Part shown: positions 1-19,151 of the stretch, in pieces
Numbering within the stretch: the first letter of the stretch is position 1
Layout of the letters: each line of letters starts with the position of its first letter
Assembly (NCBI GenBank): GCA_002402105.1
Contig: NVVD01000015.1
Span: 6,724-70,723, forward strand
Direction of reading: 5' to 3'
Source of the DNA: Candidatus Cloacimonadota bacterium
Lineage (GTDB): Bacteria > Muiribacteriota > UBA6191
Length of the DNA: 64,000 nt
Translations under genes and position numbers: made by a program
The notes under the pieces: generated by a model
Database searches by the model: none
Told to the model about the DNA's origin: nothing
What the model saw: only the letters and a program-made list of their open reading frames with translations

Positions 1-426
1 AATAAAGCAGCTATTGAGATATCTAATAACATAGATAAAAAAGAGTTTTACGAATTATTTCATGCTTACACATTGTTTTTATTAAAATCTCATGGACGAT
101 CAATCTTTTTAGACACAATCCTTCAAGATAAGATTAAACAAGAAAATCTAGATGAAAATGAACTCCTCAAAAATCTATGTATCCAATTTAAAATGTTTGA
201 TTCAAGATTTAGTGACGTTAAAACTCTTTGGGAGATCAAGAGCATAATTTTAAGATCGTTTGAAAAGAATCAATTATTTTTAGAAGAGATAGAAGGCTTG
301 AAATTAGATATTTCAAAAATGAAGGTCAATTTTGCGAAATTAGATCAAAGCTTTCTTAAATTGACAGGGCTATCTAATAATGAAATAGATTGCAGAGACT
401 TTAGGGTTTTGAGAAAAGTAAATTGA
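1..426 (+). CDS. Partial unknown protein (C-terminal part)
   Basis: The reading frame is open from the first base of the window to a TGA at 424-426, so the 5' end lies outside. The visible 141 residues are charged and mostly helical in character, with no motif that I recognise. A TTG at 73 could serve as a start but has no ribosome binding site, and the frame continues upstream, so I treat the gene as truncated by the window edge. It is convergent with the cyclase-like gene at 462-1484 and is probably part of the cargo of the element. Confidence 0.6.
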   Translation, partial: NKAAIEISNNIDKKEFYELFHAYTLFLLKSHGRSIFLDTILQDKIKQENLDENELLKNLCIQFKMFDSRFSDVKTLWEIKSIILRSFEKNQLFLEEIEGLKLDISKMKVNFAKLDQSFLKLTGLSNNEIDCRDFRVLRKVN

Positions 427-461: not shown

Positions 462-1484
462 TTAAGCTGGAGTAAGTGTATTATCTATATCAATTTCTAA
501 ACTTTCATTTATATTAATTACCAAGTTTTCAGTAATTTCTTTTATTTCAGTATTATCTTCATTTTTACTTAGTGTAGAATCTAACTCATCACTTTGATGC
601 AATACATCACTTATTGCTTTATTATATTCATTTTCAAATATTTTTAAATCAGGCTCATTTAATTCGGAATATACATAAGGCACTTCCATATGATCTGAAT
701 GAACTTTTATAAATTCTTTACAGAAGTTAAATAATTGATGTTCATCTTTTGATTTATTTAATAAGCTGTATTTCAATTCTATAAAATATTGATTCTTACC
801 TTCGATTAAATTTATGAAAATAATAGGGTATGGTTGTCCGGCTAAAACTCCTTTTAGTGGAGTCATTTCATCAAAATGAAAGTTGATTTTAATGTCATTT
901 TTTAAGGTGGTATTACTCTTATCGGAATAAAATTGTAACATTACCCATGCTAACTCAACTGAAATTATAAACTTTGTTGGATCAGAAAATTTACCTAGTC
1001 TAAATCCAGTATCAATCTGTGGTCCAATAAAATCTATTGGATTTTTAACAACTATAGAATTTGTTATGGGGAATGAAGCTATCCATGCAGTACCTTTAGA
1101 AGAAAGTTCTGTAATCTCTGGTTTATCTTTTCTTCCTTCTTTATAGTATTTACATGAATCAATAGCCTTTAGAAAAGCATATACGTAAAAAATAGCATGA
1201 GATTCTTTTTGTATTGCTTGTAGGTCGATATAAAATAAAATTTCATCACCTAAGTACTTCCAAATTTTAACAAATTCTTTTGAGATCTTAAATTCTTGTT
1301 TATTTAGAATATTTGTTTTATTTAGAGTATGTATTTCATCATAGAAGTGACTAGGGAAGTCAATATAAAACTGCTTTATAGTTGGTAGCCACTCTCTTGA
1401 CTCGTATTTATTTTTAAATGCTGTAGATCCTACAATATCCACGCTTAAAATTAAGTAAGTGCTTGAGAGTGGAAAAATCTTCAT
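462..1484 (-). CDS. Class III nucleotide cyclase-like protein
   Basis: The 340-residue protein has the layout of a class III nucleotidyl cyclase. The first metal-binding Asp is D16 in SVDIVGST, the second is D80 in KYLGDEILF, and a later block IGPQIDTGFRLG (about 153-164) corresponds to the family G-x-x-V-N-x-A-x-R-L region, with Asp at the usual Asn and R162 kept. About 100 C-terminal residues (after about 235) are acidic and unassigned. There is no membrane segment or receptor domain. Its start overlaps the end of the ImmA/IrrE gene by 4 bases, so the two are probably translated together. Soluble stand-alone cyclases in defence islands include the Pycsar cyclases; membership, and the cyclic nucleotide made, are inference. 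The D-for-N change leaves activity open. Confidence 0.75.
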   Translation of the reverse strand: MKIFPLSSTYLILSVDIVGSTAFKNKYESREWLPTIKQFYIDFPSHFYDEIHTLNKTNILNKQEFKISKEFVKIWKYLGDEILFYIDLQAIQKESHAIFYVYAFLKAIDSCKYYKEGRKDKPEITELSSKGTAWIASFPITNSIVVKNPIDFIGPQIDTGFRLGKFSDPTKFIISVELAWVMLQFYSDKSNTTLKNDIKINFHFDEMTPLKGVLAGQPYPIIFINLIEGKNQYFIELKYSLLNKSKDEHQLFNFCKEFIKVHSDHMEVPYVYSELNEPDLKIFENEYNKAISDVLHQSDELDSTLSKNEDNTEIKEITENLVININESLEIDIDNTLTPA

Positions 1485-1993
1485 AGCCTAAGTGAGTCTA
1501 TTCTAACATTCATTGCGACAATTGAAACATCAAAAATATCAGCTAACTCACATACGCTTTTATCTTGATTAAATAGTTCTTCTAATTCATTTTTAGGCAT
1601 TAAAAGTTCTGCAGCAAATCTATTGGCTTCTTTTTCTATTTGGCTAGTTCCATATCTTCTAGCATGAATCTTTATTTGTCCTGATTTAGAATGTAAAATA
1701 AAGTGTCCTAATTCATGTGCAAGAGTAAAACGGTTTCTAAGGTCATATAATTTATCTTTTAAGAAAATCTTAAAGTCTCTAACACCATCTACATACAAAG
1801 AATCTGTTTCAGCAAATTTAGCATCCCATCCAGCAGTATCAGGATGATGAACTATTCCTCCTAATTTATTAATAATGTCTTTTTCAATATTTCCACCTAC
1901 TTTAAATTTAGTAGAACGGATAAGTATTTCAGCAATTTCTCTGATAAACTCCATAGAGCAATGAAGTGGTTTAGGGTCAATATAATTAGTCAT
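1481..1993 (-). CDS. ImmA/IrrE-family metallopeptidase
   Basis: This 170-residue protein carries the zinc-protease motif HELGH at residues 93-97, followed by FILH and, about 25 residues later, KEANRFAAELLMP, which supplies the third ligand and the family hallmark. It has no N-terminal XRE domain, unlike many relatives. ImmA/IrrE proteins usually cleave or inactivate a repressor, as ImmA does in ICEBs1 and IrrE-dependent DdrO cleavage does in Deinococcus. It is first in a two-gene operon with the downstream cyclase-like gene (4-base overlap), so a cyclic nucleotide could control it or its product could control the cyclase. No XRE substrate gene is adjacent; the nearest XRE genes lie 7-8 kb away. 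Confidence 0.85.
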   Translation of the reverse strand: MTNYIDPKPLHCSMEFIREIAEILIRSTKFKVGGNIEKDIINKLGGIVHHPDTAGWDAKFAETDSLYVDGVRDFKIFLKDKLYDLRNRFTLAHELGHFILHSKSGQIKIHARRYGTSQIEKEANRFAAELLMPKNELEELFNQDKSVCELADIFDVSIVAMNVRIDSLRL

Positions 1994-3288: not shown

Positions 3289-5004
3289 CTAAATCTCTTG
3301 GTAGTGTATGCCTAGAAACTTATTTGTTTTAGTAAGTGATGCTACGGCATAATCGTCTAAATCAAACATTAATTCTTCAAGATTTTTCTCTGATAATTTA
3401 TCACGATTAAGAGTTAGAATGTACTGTTTATCCTGCATTAAATTACTATTTTCGTACAGGTAATTAAGACTCTGTACTAAGGTGTCTTGATCCACATGAA
3501 ATAAGTTATCATGTATCAAAAGTTTAGGGTGAAGTTCTTGCGAATTTGGGGATAATAATAATCCTACATCATATAGGAATACTTGCTCACGATTGATACT
3601 ATGTCCACCATCTTCAAAAGTTCTAAAATCATAAAATACGATTTGTGCTTTGTCTTTAACTTCAACTTTGAGAGATGATTTTTCATTTCCCATAATATAC
3701 TTATGTAGTTTTAATATTTGACTTTCTAAAGAAAGAATATTAGGTTCTGCATCTGTAACTAACAAATCAAATAGAGAGGTTTGATTTGTTTTTTCTATTT
3801 TTTTAGACTTCATATCATCATCAGCTTTAGTATATAGCTCCATAAACCCAGCTAAGAGAGATTGTTCTTCTACTTTAGCTTGATAAGCTGATATGGTTAC
3901 TTTTAGGTTTTTTAATACTCCATGTTTATCTATAATTATCAATTTCTTTTTATACTCTTTATCAAGTGTTTTTAACTGATTTTCAATTGATTTGATTTCT
4001 TTAGATAAGGAGTTTTTTTTATTGTCAAATAAGCTGTTTTTAAACAAGTCAATTTTCTTTTTAAAGGATATAACTTCTTGCAAGTCCTTTTTAATAAAGT
4101 CTCCTAAACCATTTTTAAACTGATTGTAAATTTCTTCAAGTTCATTCTCGTCTATATAGTTATCTCCATCAAAAAAAGAAATTTTGGAAAACTCGTGTTT
4201 AAGTACTTTATTTCTTGAGCGAAGGCATTCAATTTCAGTTTCAAGTTTAATAATGTCGTCTCGAACAATGCTATTACCTTCAAAATTTTCTAATAGATTG
4301 ATTTCATTTTCAATTGCAGTTATTTGTCCTTTTAGATCATTTAATTCAGCACTTGCATTTTCAAAAGTATTCTTTGTTATGCTTTCAATATCCTTTTTTG
4401 CTTTAGATTTAATCTTCTTTAAATCAGAAATTTCTTTATAAATTAGCTTAATTTCGTTATATAGTTTTGTGTCTATTCCAAGAAGATAAAGGTGAGGAGA
4501 ATAATTTTCTGGAATGTTTTTATCTGTATCATAATATTTGATTATCGATTTGAATTCAGACCTTTCATCTCGTGCTAATAATCCAAGCATTTCTCTAAAT
4601 GAAGGTGCTTTACTATAATCTAAAGTACCAAACATTAAGTTTGATAAATATTTATTTGCTTCATCGATGTTATAATCTTCATAAACTACATCATCTATTA
4701 TCATTGTGGGGTTCTTTTGATTTTCAATGGTTCTTTTAATAGTTATATTTTTATTTTTGATAGTAAAGTCTAGACAAACTTCTGTATCTTGAGCAAAAGA
4801 ACTACTAGGTATTTTACTCAATCGACTTTCAGAATACCTCTTTAACAAACAAAAGTTGATAAATTCAATACAAATAGATTTGCCAACACCATTTGTCTTT
4901 TTTGATTCAAAACTTGTTTCTCCAAAGATAATATTTACTCCAGAAGTAAAGCTTATTGGGGTGAAGACTTGGGGGGTGCTGTATAGTTTTAAAATTTTCA
5001 TCAT
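3289..5004 (-). CDS. DUF2326-type ATPase of an ABC-3C system
   Basis: A 571-residue SMC/RecN-like ATPase. The N-terminus has a split P-loop (FGETSFESKKTNGVGKSIC, about 28-46) typical of the DUF2326 family, the middle (about 190-370) is long coiled coil, and the C-terminal half contains LLIHDN as a Walker B-like strand. The start overlaps the stop of the middle-component gene by ATGA at 5004-5001. Three-component ABC systems combine such an ATPase with a small middle component and an effector; they are predicted conflict systems that sense invading nucleoprotein. Here it would be the sensor/motor of the operon 6206-3289. Family assignment is by recognised motif and gene order. Confidence 0.85.
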   Translation of the reverse strand: MMKILKLYSTPQVFTPISFTSGVNIIFGETSFESKKTNGVGKSICIEFINFCLLKRYSESRLSKIPSSSFAQDTEVCLDFTIKNKNITIKRTIENQKNPTMIIDDVVYEDYNIDEANKYLSNLMFGTLDYSKAPSFREMLGLLARDERSEFKSIIKYYDTDKNIPENYSPHLYLLGIDTKLYNEIKLIYKEISDLKKIKSKAKKDIESITKNTFENASAELNDLKGQITAIENEINLLENFEGNSIVRDDIIKLETEIECLRSRNKVLKHEFSKISFFDGDNYIDENELEEIYNQFKNGLGDFIKKDLQEVISFKKKIDLFKNSLFDNKKNSLSKEIKSIENQLKTLDKEYKKKLIIIDKHGVLKNLKVTISAYQAKVEEQSLLAGFMELYTKADDDMKSKKIEKTNQTSLFDLLVTDAEPNILSLESQILKLHKYIMGNEKSSLKVEVKDKAQIVFYDFRTFEDGGHSINREQVFLYDVGLLLSPNSQELHPKLLIHDNLFHVDQDTLVQSLNYLYENSNLMQDKQYILTLNRDKLSEKNLEELMFDLDDYAVASLTKTNKFLGIHYQEI

Positions 5005-5246
5005 TTTTTAATTAGGTAAGATGCTTCAAAATCAATTAAATCAACAGAATATAAAAATATTAATCCGTAATATAGTGAACTTACTGTTAATTTACTGTCA
5101 TTTTTATTGGCTTTTTGTATTTTGGTAATTACATCGAAAATACTAATCTTTGTTATACTTTTATCTTGTATAGCTCTTAATATTTTTGCCCCTATATATG
5201 GAGCAGATTTTAATAAATTCTCATCTTTTGAAAATAGTTTTGCCAT
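5001..5246 (-). CDS. ABC-3C middle component (MC6-like)
   Basis: An 81-residue helical protein placed between the SMEK and ATPase genes, 6 bases after the former and overlapping the latter by 4. Its pattern (MAKLFSKDENLLKSAPYIGA at the start, then a winged-helix-like segment ending in SSLYYGLIFLYSVDLIDFE) fits the short middle components that bridge ATPase and effector in ABC three-component systems. The winged-helix reading comes from the final part, which resembles the 'fall-through' helix and wing of such proteins. Function is inferred from position as much as from sequence. Confidence 0.75.
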   Translation of the reverse strand: MAKLFSKDENLLKSAPYIGAKILRAIQDKSITKISIFDVITKIQKANKNDSKLTVSSLYYGLIFLYSVDLIDFEASYLIKK

Positions 5247-5252
5247 AGTAAA

Positions 5253-6206
5253 TTATACCTTATTAGGGAAAACATTGCACTTTATAATCTCTTCTATTAG
5301 AAAATATTCTATAGCTGTTTTGTCATATTCAAAATTATGATTTGTGATATCAGAAACACATTGATTGACTAAACTATTTAGTGCCTCTTTTGGATTGCCA
5401 TTAAATCTATTTAGAACAAAATCTGTATGAGATTTTAAAAAAGAGGCGACCTTTTTAAGTTGAATTGGTCGAATATCACTTTCATTTAAAATTTGTTTAT
5501 AGATGTATCCGTATATTTCTACTAAATCTAAATATCTTGTGGTTAAATAATTAGAATATTCTTTAAATCTATGGTTGATTTTTCTATCAGGGTCAGGACT
5601 CTCTAAGTAGTTGGCATCATTATCAAAGTCAGCTTCATAATTACTTAAATAGTCAATAATTGCAGTAATTGTGTGAACTTCTTTTGATATTCGCTCATTT
5701 GTATTGTGCTTTAACTCTTTGTTTAAAAAAGAAGATATTTTTTCTAAAAAATGGATATCTTTATGTTTTATTTTTTTAAGAAAAGTGGTTTTATCCCAAA
5801 TGTCATTTTTTGTGTCTATTTGAAATATATTTGATTCACCAATATAGTTATCTTTATGTGAAGATTTTTTTACAATATTGTAAATTATGAGTTTATCATA
5901 GTCTTTATAAAGTTCTTTTTCTATAAACTTGTTAACCGTTTTTTTAGTTTTCTTTAAATTTGAATCTGCTGTGATTTGAAAAGCGATTCTATTAACTTTG
6001 TCTCCTAAATCAATAGAGGCAGTGTTGGATGCAATTTCATTCATATTTTTTAATTCATACCCAAAACATAGGTTTAATAGTTGGCAATAAAAATCTTCTG
6101 CAGCAGTATTTAGATTAAGTAAATTGATTGATCCGCAAAGTTCAATTTTAGTAGTTAATATTGATAATCCAGATGTAATTGACTTCCAATGATCTTCTCT
6201 ATACAT
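5253..6206 (-). CDS. SMEK-domain effector of an ABC-3C system
   Basis: A protein of 317 residues from ATG 6206, which has a GAGGT ribosome binding site; a longer frame reaches 6272 but lacks one. The first 170 residues match the SMEK type: an amphipathic start (YREDHWKSITSGLSIL), then AAEDFYCQLLNLCFGYEL, and ASIDLGDKVNRIAFQIT. The Asp followed by Gln-x-Thr is reminiscent of a PD-(D/E)xK nuclease core with a Q variant, so a nuclease role is plausible but not shown. The C-terminal half (about 170-317) is helical and may contact the middle component. It is the first gene of the ABC-3C operon and the likely effector. Confidence 0.75.
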   Translation of the reverse strand: MYREDHWKSITSGLSILTTKIELCGSINLLNLNTAAEDFYCQLLNLCFGYELKNMNEIASNTASIDLGDKVNRIAFQITADSNLKKTKKTVNKFIEKELYKDYDKLIIYNIVKKSSHKDNYIGESNIFQIDTKNDIWDKTTFLKKIKHKDIHFLEKISSFLNKELKHNTNERISKEVHTITAIIDYLSNYEADFDNDANYLESPDPDRKINHRFKEYSNYLTTRYLDLVEIYGYIYKQILNESDIRPIQLKKVASFLKSHTDFVLNRFNGNPKEALNSLVNQCVSDITNHNFEYDKTAIEYFLIEEIIKCNVFPNKV

Positions 6207-6342
6207 AAATTGACCTCGAATTGGTCTAAGGTGTTTGAAATTATTGATTGTTGGATAACACGTAGCCATCACGACGTTAGATTAGCTTGACTAGACAGCA
6301 AATTAATTAACGGTAGTATATTAACAATATATAAATGAAATA

Positions 6343-7878: not shown

Positions 7879-8955
7879 ATGATTGGTAAAGATGGAATTT
7901 TAGAAGTTAAAAACTTTAGGGATATAAATATAAAAGATTCTTTTTTTGATAGCTTAAAAGAGGACTATGAAGAGTTTGAGTCATGGTTTAAAAAAAAATC
8001 AGATAAGGAAGCTTTTATTTTTGAAAGTGAAAGCGATCTTCTTGCTTTTTTATATTTGAAGGTAGAGTCAGAAGAAGTTACAGATATTGAGCCAAATTTA
8101 CCAAAAAAGAATAGATTAAAGATTGGTACTTTTAAAATAGAGCCTCATGGTACTCGACTTGGTGAAAGATTTATTAAGAAAATGTTTGATTATGCTCTTG
8201 ATAAAGGTCTTGATGAAGCTTATGTAACAATTTTTAAAAAGCATGATTATTTAATTAAGCTATTTGAAAAGTATGGATTTAAACATTGTGGTACTAAAAC
8301 TACTGATAATGGTATTGAAGAAGTATATATTAAATGTTTTTCAGATGAAAATAATGATGTACTTATTGATTATCCTGTTATGCCATTTAAGAAAAATGAA
8401 ACTAATATATATCTAATGCCAATTGACCCACCTTATCACACTAGATTATTTCCAGATTCAATTTTAAATAATGAAGATTCATCGATAGTAGATGATTGCT
8501 CACATACAAATAGTATTCATAAAGTATATATTGCTTTTAGAGATGATATTGGGCTTAAAAGAGGAGACATATTAGCTGTTTATAGAACAAAAAAAGGATT
8601 GGATGGACCAGCAAAATATAAAAGTGTTGTTACATCATTTTGTGTGGTCGAAGAAGTAAAAGAAAAACAAAACTTTGTAAGTGAAACAGATTTTATTGAT
8701 TATTGTAGAAATTATAGTATTTTTACTGTTGAAGAGTTAGAAAAATGGTATAAAACTAAGCAGAGATTTACAGCTATAAAGATGACTTATAATTTAGCTC
8801 TTAAAAAAAGAGTTATTAGAGAGTTTTTATTAGAAGAAGTTGGTATATCTGAAAATGATCGTATTAATTTTTTAAAAATAAGTCCTAATCAATTTTGGCA
8901 AATTAAACTAAAAGGAATGGTTGATGATGAACGTACTGTTATCTATAAAACCTGA
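7879..8955 (+). CDS. GNAT acetyltransferase-like protein
   Basis: A 358-residue protein starting at ATG 7879 after AAAGGAGATATTCA. Residues 1-155 are GNAT-like: the stretch IEPHGTRLGERFIKKMFDYA corresponds to the acetyl-CoA-binding region and AYVTIFKKHDYLIKLFEKYGFKHCG (given here in two blocks, AYVTIFKKHDY and LFEKYGFKHCG) to the typical last strand and helix. The C-terminal half (about 165-358) with FPDSI, IHKVYIAF and LKRGDILAVYR resembles a PUA/EVE-like RNA-binding fold. The ASCH gene overlaps its 3' end by 32 bases. The pair may modify or bind RNA or a translation component; cassette-borne toxin-antitoxin or defence function is possible. Confidence 0.65.
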   Translation: MIGKDGILEVKNFRDINIKDSFFDSLKEDYEEFESWFKKKSDKEAFIFESESDLLAFLYLKVESEEVTDIEPNLPKKNRLKIGTFKIEPHGTRLGERFIKKMFDYALDKGLDEAYVTIFKKHDYLIKLFEKYGFKHCGTKTTDNGIEEVYIKCFSDENNDVLIDYPVMPFKKNETNIYLMPIDPPYHTRLFPDSILNNEDSSIVDDCSHTNSIHKVYIAFRDDIGLKRGDILAVYRTKKGLDGPAKYKSVVTSFCVVEEVKEKQNFVSETDFIDYCRNYSIFTVEELEKWYKTKQRFTAIKMTYNLALKKRVIREFLLEEVGISENDRINFLKISPNQFWQIKLKGMVDDERTVIYKT

Positions 8956-14965: not shown

Positions 14966-15991
14966 ATGTCTGAAAGTCTAATCAAAATGGCAAACATAAC
15001 AAAAGTTAAAATATCGAATAAAAAAGTTAGTTACAGAGTCAGAGTAAGAATGTCTGGTAAGAGCATAAATAAAACATTTAGAACAATGGGAGAAGCAAGA
15101 AACTATGTTTTAGCAATAGAGAATGAACTTGAATCTGGTAAGTATGCTGATTATAAAAGTAATATGTTAATTGATGATTTATTTGAAAAATATATAAGTG
15201 AAGTTTTACCACTATTAAAGCAGCCAGAAAAATATATTTATCCTTTTAAATTGTTTTCTGAAAAGATAGGGTTTTTAGAGTTAAAAGATGTTACTCTTCC
15301 TTTATTGTTAGATGTAAGACAAAAAATGATGGTAGAAAATACAATCAGCTTTTCAACAATCAATAGATATTTTGCAACAGTTGGTCGTAGTTTTAGTATG
15401 GCTGTAGAATGGGAGTTTCTTAATAAAAATATTTTTCTAAAATTAACTAAATTAAAAGAACCAAAAGGAAGAGTTCGTTTCTTATCAGATGAAGAAAGAG
15501 AAAGACTACTATTTGAATGTAAAAAAACAGACTATCTATATTTATTAGTAATCTTAGCTTTAACAACTGGAGCAAGAAAAAATGAGATAATGTCTTTAAA
15601 ATGGGAGCAAGTAATATTTCGTGAAAATATTATTGTATTAGAAGATACTAAAAACGGAGAACGTAGATCCTTACCCTTGTGTGACTCATCAAAGGCATTA
15701 TTATTGGAGTGGAAATCTAAAGAAATTGATAAAGTAAAAGTGTTTCACATTAAATCAGCTAGAGGTGCATGGAGAACAGCAATTAAAAAAGCAGAGATAG
15801 AAAACTTTAAGTTTCATGATCTAAGGCATTGTTGTGCTTCATACTTGGCAATGCAAGGAGTTTCATTACTTGCAATTGCCGATATCTTGGGGCATAAAAG
15901 CTTAGATATGGTTAAAAGATATGCACATCTATCTAATGACTATAAAAGTAAAATCATACATACATTAGGTGACTATTTATTTCCTAAGTAG
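14966..15991 (+). CDS. Tyrosine integrase of the element
   Basis: A 341-residue phage-type integrase. Residues 12-60 form an arm-binding-like start (KVSYRVRVRMSGKSINKTFR), 60-160 the core-binding domain and 165-341 the catalytic domain: Arg in TTGARKNEIMSLKW, then FHDLRHCCASYL, ILGHKS and the nucleophile Tyr in VKRYAHLS. The first ATG is kept (AAGG 8 bases upstream); an alternative ATG lies 21 bases downstream. It is followed by a terminator and, 340 bases on, by the tRNA 3' half, the expected attachment site. It should catalyse insertion of the element and, with a directionality factor, excision. Confidence 0.93.
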   Translation: MSESLIKMANITKVKISNKKVSYRVRVRMSGKSINKTFRTMGEARNYVLAIENELESGKYADYKSNMLIDDLFEKYISEVLPLLKQPEKYIYPFKLFSEKIGFLELKDVTLPLLLDVRQKMMVENTISFSTINRYFATVGRSFSMAVEWEFLNKNIFLKLTKLKEPKGRVRFLSDEERERLLFECKKTDYLYLLVILALTTGARKNEIMSLKWEQVIFRENIIVLEDTKNGERRSLPLCDSSKALLLEWKSKEIDKVKVFHIKSARGAWRTAIKKAEIENFKFHDLRHCCASYLAMQGVSLLAIADILGHKSLDMVKRYAHLSNDYKSKIIHTLGDYLFPK

Positions 15992-16688: not shown

Positions 16689-19151
16689 ATGAAGATGTTT
16701 TTGGTGATTTTTTTTAATTTATTTTTAATGTGTTCTTTTGCTATTTCTATGGGTTCAGAAAACCTTGGAATATTACAATTAAAACAAGAGCTTGAAGCGA
16801 AATCTTTATTAAAAGCAGAAAGCTCAAAAGAAGAAGTTGCTGCTTCACAGGGTTTTGAAAAAAAAATAATCATTATTGAGGATGTTGGTGAGTTTCCTAG
16901 CATTACACATATAAAAAAAATATCTCCAAATTTGTTAGATGGTTTTGTAGATAAAAAAATATCCTATTTTGGACATCGTTTGTTTAAGAAGTTAAATTTG
17001 GAGTTATCTAAATTTAGTCTTGAAACTTCTAATGTGCCAGATGATTATAAAATAGGTGTTGGAGATCGTTTTAGTATCCATGTTTGGAATCAAACCCAAG
17101 ATCAAATTGTTCCAGTCAGCGTGAACTCATCAGGTATGATAAAGTTTCCACTAGCAGGAGAAATATTTGTAAAAGGAATAAAAAAAGAAGAGTTAAAATC
17201 CTTTTTACTAAAAAGACTATCTAGATTTTATAAAACCTTAAATTTGTCATTTGAGTTTATTAAGTTACGTCAATTTCCAATATATATTACAGGTGAGGTT
17301 CGCTCACCTGGAGTTTATATGGCAAATGCTATATCAACCCCATTACAGTTAATTATCGCAGCAGGTGGGCCAACTTTTGAGGGTAGTTTAAGAGAAGTTG
17401 AATTAATTCAAGGAAATAAATCTTTTAAAAAAATAGATTTTTATCAATACTTATTAACGGGTAAGTTTGATAGAAATTTTTATTTAAAGTCTGGAAATTC
17501 AATACATGTTCCATTAACAAAAAAAACTATAGCAGTATTGGGGGAAGTCAAACGTGTAGGAGTATTTGAACTAAAATCGTGGGAAAAACTATCCCATCTT
17601 ATTTCATATGCTGGAGGAGTTTTGTCGAATGCAAATACTAGTTCTTTTCAGGTTGTACATTTTAATAAAGATGGGAGATCTGTATTAAAAGATATAGACT
17701 TTAGTAAATCTCAAAAGGTTTTATTGGCGGATGGAGACGTATTGATGGTTCATCCAAGACTAGAAGAAATTAAAAATAAAGTATTAATTAGAGGAAATGT
17801 ATATAGAACAGGGCTGTTTGAGTGGAAAAATGGTTTAACGCTAAAAAAACTGATTAAAAAAGCTCAAGGAATAAAAGAAGATACATATTTAGAAAGAGTC
17901 GAAATCTATAGATTAAAAAGAGATAAAAATACTTTTACAGAGGTATCTGGTTTAAAGGTTATAACAAATAAAGAGCTAATTATAAAGAGTTTGTCTCTTG
18001 ATGATAAAGAAGAGAGCTTTTACTTGCAAGCAGGAGACGAGGTAAAAGTATTTCACTTATCAGAAGTCCAAAATAGTCCTAGTGTAAGTATTTCAGGGGA
18101 AGTTGTAAACGCAAAAGATTTTCCACTAAATTGGAATACAAAAGTAAAAGATATTTTAATATTAGCAAAATTAACTAAAAATGCTCATATGAAAAGTGGA
18201 GAAATCTACCGTGAAGCCAAAAATGGAATAAAAATAATAAAGTTTCATATTAGAAGAGCTTTAGAAAACTCTATTGTTCATAATATGAAATTAGAAAATC
18301 ACGATAAAATAACAATTTTTAAAGATCCAAACAGAGTAAATCAAGGGGTTATTGCTTTAAAAGGAGAGATTGCTTTTCCTGGTAAATATACATTTAAAAT
18401 GGGAGATACCTTAGTAAGTCTTTTAAAAAGAGCAGGAGGTTTAACAAAATACTCTTATTTGCCCGCAAGTAAATTTTATAGAAAATCAGTAGCTCAAAGA
18501 CAAGCAAAAATGAAAGAGAGATTTGTAAAAAGAGAAAAACAAAATATTTCAAATATGCAAACTCAATTGTTAAGCAGTAAAGTGGATGATAAAGAAAAAC
18601 AAGTTCAAATCCAATCTTTAGAACAAGTAGAAAAAACAATAGATAAGTTAGCGGGTGTATTAACGTCGGGTAGGATATTATTATCTTTAGAAAATAATAA
18701 GCAAAGGAAGATACTGAAAGGTTCTATTAATGATATAGCATTAGAAGATGGAGATGTATTTGTAGTTCCTTTAAAACCAACTGAAGTATCAGTATCGGGG
18801 CAGGTATACTCTCCATTAACTGAACTGTATAGAAAAAATGCCAATTTAGAAGATTATATTAGAGATGCTGGAGGTTTTACTGAACATGCTTATAAAGAAA
18901 GGGTTTATATTATTAAAGCAAGTGGAAGAGCTATTCCAGCAAGTGTATTGAAAAATACTATTTCTAGCAATAGGTACATTGGAAAAATTAATAAAAAATC
19001 TTTTTTTGTAAATAAAGGGACTTTATCACCAGGAGATTTTATTGTAGTACCAACAAAAATAAAATTTCGAAAAAATAGAATGAAAGATATTTTGGATAGT
19101 GTCTATAAAATGGCTATAACAGTAGGTGCATTGGGTGGGCTGTTTAAGTAA
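16689..19151 (+). CDS. Wza-type polysaccharide export protein with six SLBB domains
   Basis: An 820-residue exported protein. Residues 1-20 are a signal peptide (MKMFLVIFFNLFLMCSFAIS). The Poly_export domain starts near 115 (DYKIGVGDRFSIHVWN), followed by six SLBB domains recognisable by GEVRSPGVY, GEVKRVGVFE, GNVYRTGLFE, GEVVNAKDFP, GEIAFPGKYT and GQVYSPLTEL. A coiled-coil insert (about 605-655) separates the fifth and sixth. The family forms outer-membrane channels for capsule or exopolysaccharide. E. coli Wza has about 380 residues and fewer SLBB units, so this is an extended form. No other export or polysaccharide synthesis gene is adjacent. GGAGCTCTT precedes the start. Confidence 0.88.
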   Translation: MKMFLVIFFNLFLMCSFAISMGSENLGILQLKQELEAKSLLKAESSKEEVAASQGFEKKIIIIEDVGEFPSITHIKKISPNLLDGFVDKKISYFGHRLFKKLNLELSKFSLETSNVPDDYKIGVGDRFSIHVWNQTQDQIVPVSVNSSGMIKFPLAGEIFVKGIKKEELKSFLLKRLSRFYKTLNLSFEFIKLRQFPIYITGEVRSPGVYMANAISTPLQLIIAAGGPTFEGSLREVELIQGNKSFKKIDFYQYLLTGKFDRNFYLKSGNSIHVPLTKKTIAVLGEVKRVGVFELKSWEKLSHLISYAGGVLSNANTSSFQVVHFNKDGRSVLKDIDFSKSQKVLLADGDVLMVHPRLEEIKNKVLIRGNVYRTGLFEWKNGLTLKKLIKKAQGIKEDTYLERVEIYRLKRDKNTFTEVSGLKVITNKELIIKSLSLDDKEESFYLQAGDEVKVFHLSEVQNSPSVSISGEVVNAKDFPLNWNTKVKDILILAKLTKNAHMKSGEIYREAKNGIKIIKFHIRRALENSIVHNMKLENHDKITIFKDPNRVNQGVIALKGEIAFPGKYTFKMGDTLVSLLKRAGGLTKYSYLPASKFYRKSVAQRQAKMKERFVKREKQNISNMQTQLLSSKVDDKEKQVQIQSLEQVEKTIDKLAGVLTSGRILLSLENNKQRKILKGSINDIALEDGDVFVVPLKPTEVSVSGQVYSPLTELYRKNANLEDYIRDAGGFTEHAYKERVYIIKASGRAIPASVLKNTISSNRYIGKINKKSFFVNKGTLSPGDFIVVPTKIKFRKNRMKDILDSVYKMAITVGALGGLFK

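What the first reader, a model, noticed from the sequence alone, without database searches (positions are those of the whole stretch)
462..1993. ImmA/IrrE protease coupled to a class III cyclase-like protein
The two genes overlap by 4 bases. The cyclase keeps both metal-binding Asp residues (D16 and D80), but has Asp in place of the usual transition-state Asn (IDTGFRL). The protease has an intact HELGH. Soluble stand-alone cyclases in defence islands make signals that activate an effector (Pycsar, CBASS-like logic). Here the partner is a repressor-cleaving-type protease instead of a membrane or TIR effector, so a signal-controlled protease defence module is possible.
Basis: partly seen in the sequence, partly recalled or inferred. 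Interest (0 to 1): 0.75.

Follow-up and report, generated by a model that had tools for sequence, protein, structure and literature searches.

The report
Protease-paired Pycsar-like cyclase gene module
This two-gene unit, a small zinc protease next to an enzyme of the family that makes cyclic nucleotide signals, recurs in bacteria of at least eight phyla and in their viruses and plasmids, and probably works as a signal-linked virus-defence switch, which has not been tested.

Summary
ORFs 462-1484(-) and 1481-1993(-) overlap by 4 nt. The first has a confidently predicted class III cyclase fold, although no Pfam, NCBIfam or PADLOC model matches it. The second is a minimal M78 (ImmA/IrrE) protease with intact HELGH.

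In an 80%-non-redundant set of 119 cyclases, 82 have the M78 gene directly upstream, in at least eight phyla plus phages and plasmids. Most unpaired members are two chromosomal alphaproteobacterial clades, both lacking the paired proteins' distal C-terminal tail.

The Asp replacing the transition-state Asn is the family rule. It does not suggest inactivity, since three cyclases beside the Pycsar effector gene PycTM also carry Asp there.

The main new result is that PycTM itself lies beside the M78-cyclase pair in 7 of the 82, in at least three lineages, far above chance. The window copy has no PycTM and sits in a prophage between lysis genes and an integrase.

Best reading: a mobile Pycsar-like variant in which a protease lacking the GAF sensor domain of PprI/CapP is coupled to a cyclase. 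Whether the protease is the effector or the regulator is not shown. Anti-phage activity is inferred.

The parts
462..1484 (-). Class III cyclase-fold protein (CHD), 340 aa; residues 1-230 cyclase fold, 230-340 helical C-terminal part with low-confidence distal tail
1481..1993 (-). Minimal M78 (ImmA/IrrE) zinc protease, 170 aa, upstream partner gene
   Evidence: PF06114 3.8e-20; PADLOC capP 8.6e-24; PDB matches CapP 7t5t and IrrE/PprI 8slm
1481..1484 (-). 4-nt overlap (ATGA) of the two genes, consistent with translational coupling
   Evidence: median spacing in 82 pairs is -4 nt
1437..1439 (-). codon of metal-binding Asp D16
   Evidence: invariant in 70 of 70
1245..1247 (-). codon of metal-binding Asp D80 (GDE motif)
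   Evidence: invariant in 70 of 70
1011..1013 (-). codon of D158, in place of the transition-state Asn
999..1001 (-). codon of R162, conserved transition-state Arg position
   Evidence: invariant
1703..1717 (-). HELGH zinc-binding motif of the M78 protease
   Evidence: His/Glu kept in 81 of 82 partners
462..701 (-). C-terminal region of the CHD (residues ~262-340, plus stop codon); its distal tail is present in M78-paired members and shorter or absent in solo ones
   Evidence: pLDDT falls below 50 at 331-340

Best explanation
A mobile two-gene signalling module, most likely anti-phage. Shown: gene pairing; a predicted class III cyclase fold with metal Asps, Lys, Arg and phosphate-Lys positions conserved; [quoted passage not shown] prophage, plasmid and defence-gene settings; PycTM beside some pairs. 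Inferred: the two proteins form a complex in which the cyclase domain does the nucleotide sensing or signalling that the GAF-like domain does in PprI/CapP. On infection the cyclase binds or makes a nucleotide signal, which switches the protease on to cleave a cell or phage protein. Where PycTM is present, the same signal also opens a membrane effector.
For: 82 of 119 non-redundant cyclases have M78 directly upstream on the same strand, median spacing -4 nt. M78 and CHD distances correlate (rho 0.52; best of 2000 permutations 0.19), as expected if they travel together. Both active sites are conserved. M78 is the only constant partner; in most loci no other gene recurs beside the pair, which fits M78 as the executing partner. 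PycTM, the Pycsar membrane effector family, lies 16-64 bp from or overlapping the pair in 7 of 82, all over the Pfam cut-off, while only 26 of 398, 3 of 299 and 9 of 95 sampled genomes carry one at all. NUDIX domains are fused to the CHD in L087, L107 and L120, pointing to nucleotide chemistry. In PprI, removing the GAF-like domain keeps basal cleavage but abolishes ssDNA stimulation (PMC10904395), so a partner supplying control is plausible. A fused M78-CHD prediction gave pTM 0.68, suggestive only.
Against: No cyclic-nucleotide-binding domain is recognised in the M78 protein. No natural M78-CHD fusion was found. 75 of 82 pairs, the window included, have no PycTM beside them. The protease target is unknown. 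No activity of any kind is demonstrated. PF18967 (PycTM) also occurs in settings that do not look like Pycsar, so its presence is not proof of cyclic-nucleotide signalling.
Confidence: 0.42

Rival explanations
1. Protease-controlled cyclase: M78 is the regulator. On stress or infection it clips the cyclase (probably its C-terminal tail), switching cyclase activity on or off; the cyclic nucleotide then acts on PycTM where present or on an unlinked effector.
For: Known M78 proteases cleave a partner encoded next to them (ImmR, CapH, DdrO; PMC2701414, PMC13373217, PMC10904395). M78 is the first gene, as a regulator often is. M78-paired cyclases have longer, variable, often acidic C-terminal tails (median 120 residues after the YP motif, versus 84 in unpaired ones). 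PycTM in some loci is a separate effector, so the protease need not be one.
Against: Most loci encode no other effector nearby. The tail comparison rests mainly on two unpaired clades, so it is phylogenetically weak. No conserved cleavage-site motif was seen in the tails.
Confidence: 0.32
2. Toxin-antitoxin-like or prophage-regulatory pair without immune signalling: the CHD senses nucleotide levels and M78 controls lysogeny or a toxin.
For: Pairs are common in prophages. In LE1 and in a Treponema group repressor-like genes lie nearby. COG2856 proteases were predicted as parts of toxin-antitoxin-like circuits, with phiC2 and a Leptospira biflexa temperate phage named (PMC2701414).
Against: In phiCD27 the repressor has its own adjacent metalloprotease (gp43/gp44), while the pair is a separate unit between integrase and endolysin. 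Few pairs have an HTH neighbour. Loci on plasmids and in cellular genomes show no common repressor. Strict conservation of the cyclase active site and the PycTM neighbours are not expected.
Confidence: 0.17
3. Chance neighbours, or a degenerate cyclase with no working partnership.
For: The transition-state Asn is lost; no library recognises the CHD.
Against: Same order in 82 of 119 non-redundant relatives across at least eight phyla; invariant metal Asps, Arg and GDE motif; Asp at the same position in PycTM-linked cyclases L220, L244, L247, and EaPycC has Ser there.
Confidence: 0.03

Closest known systems
Pycsar (PycC cyclase with PycTM or PycTIR effector)
   Same: Class III cyclase fold with the two metal Asps in a small stand-alone soluble cyclase; PycTM neighbour in 7 of 82 pairs; Asp at the transition-state Asn position, as in PycTM-linked cyclases L220, L244 and L247
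   Different: Constant partner is an M78 protease; most loci lack PycTM or PycTIR; Arg kept where those three PycC-like neighbours have Lys; Ser at the D-2 pocket position where EaPycC and AnPycC have Phe (PMC11224242); no PADLOC model hits it
CapP/CapH and PprI(IrrE)/DdrO protease switches
   Same: M78 zinc protease working with an adjacently encoded protein; CapP is the best PADLOC hit and CapP/PprI the PDB hits
   Different: Partner is a cyclase and not an HTH repressor; [quoted passage not shown]
Canonical class III adenylate cyclases (CyaB, Rv1900c, CyaC)
   Same: Fold (Z about 15-16) and positions of metal Asps, Lys/Asp purine pair (K76, D151), Arg and phosphate Lys (K211)
   Different: Asp replaces the transition-state Asn; sequence too divergent for any class III profile

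Membership tests
Class III nucleotide cyclases | class III catalytic-domain fold | tested here: met
   pLDDT 84, pTM 0.82; Z 16.5 to 3r5g, 186 residues at 2.8 A
Class III nucleotide cyclases | two metal-binding Asp | tested here: met
   D16 and D80 invariant in 70 of 70; position by motif and fold
Class III nucleotide cyclases | transition-state Asn and Arg | tested here: inconclusive
   Asn replaced by Asp throughout, Arg kept; PycC-type cyclases also vary at this Asn
Class III nucleotide cyclases | cyclase activity on an NTP | not testable with these tools
   needs purified protein
Pycsar | cyclase is a member of PycC clades A-E | tested here: inconclusive
   no PADLOC match; no profile match to solved PycC sequences; no tree with PycC clades was built
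Pycsar | adjacent PycTM or PycTIR effector | tested here: not met
   not met at the window locus, and no PF18967 match in its genome; met in 7 of 82 relatives
Pycsar | makes cCMP or cUMP and protects from phage | not testable with these tools
   experiment needed
ImmA/IrrE (M78) peptidases | PF06114 domain with HExxH and third ligand Glu | tested here: met
   72.4 bits against cut-off 22; H93, E94, H97, E120
CapP/PprI ssDNA-activated proteases | C-terminal GAF-like domain needed for ssDNA activation | tested here: not met
   170 aa; matched stretches end before chain residue 170 of the 291-aa chains; most partners are 164-205 aa
CapP/CapH type regulators | adjacent HTH repressor as substrate | tested here: not met
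   none recognised beside the window pair; rare near other pairs

The most novel reading that the evidence does not exclude
A new branch of cyclic-mononucleotide immunity in which a class III cyclase replaces the sensor domain of an M78 protease, giving a nucleotide-gated protease as effector, sometimes combined with the Pycsar pore PycTM.
Probability: 0.3. Interest if true: 0.85.

Novelty: new variant of a known kind. Interest (0 to 1): 0.62.

Why it matters
The cyclase family has no name in Pfam, NCBIfam or PADLOC, yet about one in twenty sampled Pseudomonadota genomes carries a member. Outside two chromosomal clades, most members are paired with a protease. If it works as proposed, Pycsar-like signalling would gain a proteolytic arm and M78 proteases a non-HTH partner. 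The prediction is directly testable with two small soluble proteins.

Tried and rejected
Chance pairing was rejected by recurrence. Catalytic death because of the Asn-to-Asp change was rejected as an argument. D158 invariance in the set fetched by pattern is partly circular because the search pattern contained that Asp, so it was rechecked in profile-found genomes, where it holds in every recognised motif; the motif was not recognised in a few weak or divergent hits. Natural M78-CHD fusions as Rosetta-stone evidence: none in the held loci. Other shared third genes besides PycTM: none recurring across lineages. AlphaFold2 on a read-through M78-CHD product (L024): pTM 0.68, no interface data, inconclusive. 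Literature: no paper found that joins ImmA/IrrE proteases with Pycsar-type cyclases (open-access library only; the original Pycsar paper is not held). PycC structures were not among the 50 rows shown in the structural comparison; this is not evidence against kinship.

Full report
What is there. ORF 462-1484(-) (340 aa) and ORF 1481-1993(-) (170 aa) overlap by four bases, M78 first. The M78 protein is a PF06114 peptidase, 72 bits against a cut-off of 22; its best PADLOC match is CapP and its solved relatives are CapP 7t5t and the IrrE/PprI ortholog 8slm. The 340-aa protein has no credible match in Pfam, NCBIfam, PADLOC or by profile in the PDB, only two PHROG families of unknown function. AlphaFold2 on 70 relatives gave pLDDT 84 and pTM 0.82. 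Residues 1-230 match class III cyclases: CyaB Z 16.5, Cya2 16.1, Rv1900c 15.7.

Active site. In 70 relatives S14, D16, K24, W32, W75, GDE 79-81, G154, D158, GFR 160-162, G212 and P220 are invariant, and K76, K130, D151, K211 and Y219 nearly so. By motif and fold, D16 and D80 are the metal Asps, K76 and D151 the purine Lys/Asp pair of canonical adenylate cyclases (established knowledge of mammalian adenylate cyclase), R162 the transition-state Arg and K211 the phosphate Lys. D158 takes the place of the transition-state Asn. G154, D158, G160 and F161 were part of the search pattern used to fetch these loci, so their invariance there is partly by construction. It was rechecked in nine members found by tblastn or single-protein search and in genomes found by profile alone: Asp in every recognised motif. 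Three cyclases that lie beside PycTM genes (L220, L244, L247) also have Asp there, with Lys for Arg, and the cytidylate cyclase 8jsf aligns Ser at that place. The Asp therefore does not argue against activity. Substrate choice stays open: the Lys/Asp pair looks adenine-like, while S14 occupies a position where EaPycC and AnPycC have Phe (PMC11224242).

Recurrence. One genome scan gave 155 confirmed relatives, of which the best 80 were kept, and a viral scan 53; plasmids and phages gave 14 records. In an 80% non-redundant set of 119, 82 have M78 directly upstream, median spacing -4 nt, 64 of 82 within 30 nt (some larger overlaps come from start-codon choice). A few loci counted as unpaired (L036, L196, L207) do have an M78 gene just outside the thresholds. 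Hosts include Pseudomonadota, Spirochaetota, Verrucomicrobiota, Planctomycetota, Actinomycetota, Fibrobacterota, Bacillota and a record titled Candidatus Cloacimonadota. M78 and CHD pairwise distances correlate, rho 0.52 against a permutation maximum of 0.19. In evenly drawn genomes the profile matches 25 of 398 Pseudomonadota at E below 0.001, about 20 of them strongly, and 14 of 296 in the phylum of L041.

Unpaired members. Most form two chromosomal clades nested in the tree: one in Caulobacterales near genes recognisable by eye as spoT, pyrE and pdxJ, one in sphingomonads and Phenylobacterium near a PP2C phosphatase gene. Both have shorter C-termini: tails after the YP motif have a median of 84 residues in unpaired and 120 in paired proteins. 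Since this rests mainly on two clades, the rank-test p-value is not a fair measure. The paired tails are variable and often acidic. I infer that the distal tail serves the protease partnership.

PycTM. A Pfam scan of 109 neighbouring ORFs found PycTM, the Pycsar effector family, three times (PADLOC agrees). A profile then found it beside the pair in L010 (phiCD27), L030, L039, L087, L107, L109 and L120, each over the Pfam cut-off. On the tree these fall in at least three separate places. PF18967 is present over cut-off in 26 of 398, 3 of 299 and 9 of 95 sampled genomes, so direct adjacency in 7 of 82 is far above chance; with one copy per roughly 10 to 100 genomes and two flanking slots among thousands of genes, far fewer than one would be expected (my estimate). 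Caution: PF18967 also occurs in settings that do not look like Pycsar. The same clade that carries PycTM in L087, L107 and L120 also has NUDIX domains fused to the CHD, and one member of the first alignment, by sequence the phiCD27 protein, shows a weak NUDIX match.

Setting of the window copy. The flanking contig holds an endolysin and a holin just before the pair, and a phage-type integrase lies at window 14966-15991, followed by what looks like a polysaccharide-export gene. The pair thus sits in prophage cargo, next to an ABC-3C system (SMEK, MC6, DUF2326). In the sister prophage of L011/L002 the ABC-3C proteins are 79-90% identical and the endolysin 77%, but M78 and CHD only 41% and 36%. 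This points to allele replacement or fast change of the pair, as is common for conflict genes.

How it may work. M78 proteases of known function cleave an adjacently encoded partner (ImmR, CapH, DdrO; PMC2701414, PMC13373217). [quoted passage not shown] The protease here lacks it: most partners are 164-205 aa against 291 aa. I infer that the CHD supplies control in trans. Two directions remain: the nucleotide state of the CHD gates the protease (0.42), or the protease gates the cyclase (0.32). For the first: M78 is the only constant partner and most loci have no other effector. For the second: known M78 biology, the tail, and PycTM as a separate effector. The fused AlphaFold2 model (pTM 0.68) fits contact between the two but does not show it. 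Toxin-antitoxin-like or lysogeny control is possible (0.17), but phiCD27 carries a separate repressor-metalloprotease pair of its own.

Verdict. Real, widespread, and not described in the libraries or papers available here. Closest kind: Pycsar, from which it differs by its constant protease and, at the window locus, by having no PycTM. I file it as a new variant of a known kind and do not call the window locus a Pycsar system. Immune function is inferred from context.

Noticed in passing
window 3289-6272: ABC-three-component system next to the pair: SMEK-domain protein, MC6, DUF2326 ATPase-like protein; conserved at 79-90% in the sister prophage L011
   Followed up: partly
window 7879-8955: GNAT-like protein strongly matching PADLOC candidate PDC-M11A (1.1e-134), in the same prophage cargo
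   Followed up: no
L144 5878-7149 (its 3' end is window 1-426): Pentapeptide-repeat-like protein convergent to the CHD gene, kept at 61% identity in L011/L002; a possible third component
   Followed up: partly
L025, L045, L047, L057, L078, L083 and relatives: Solo members of the same cyclase family without M78, beside spoT- and pyrE-like genes in Caulobacterales; apparently domesticated
   Followed up: partly
L219-L226: PF18967 (PycTM) proteins in settings unlike Pycsar, for example beside RecD-like or histidine kinase genes; the family may be broader than Pycsar
   Followed up: no
L191, L193, L194: Broken or truncated copies of the cyclase gene without M78
   Followed up: no
window 16689-19151: Large protein that looks like a polysaccharide-export component, marking the likely chromosomal side of the prophage
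   Followed up: no
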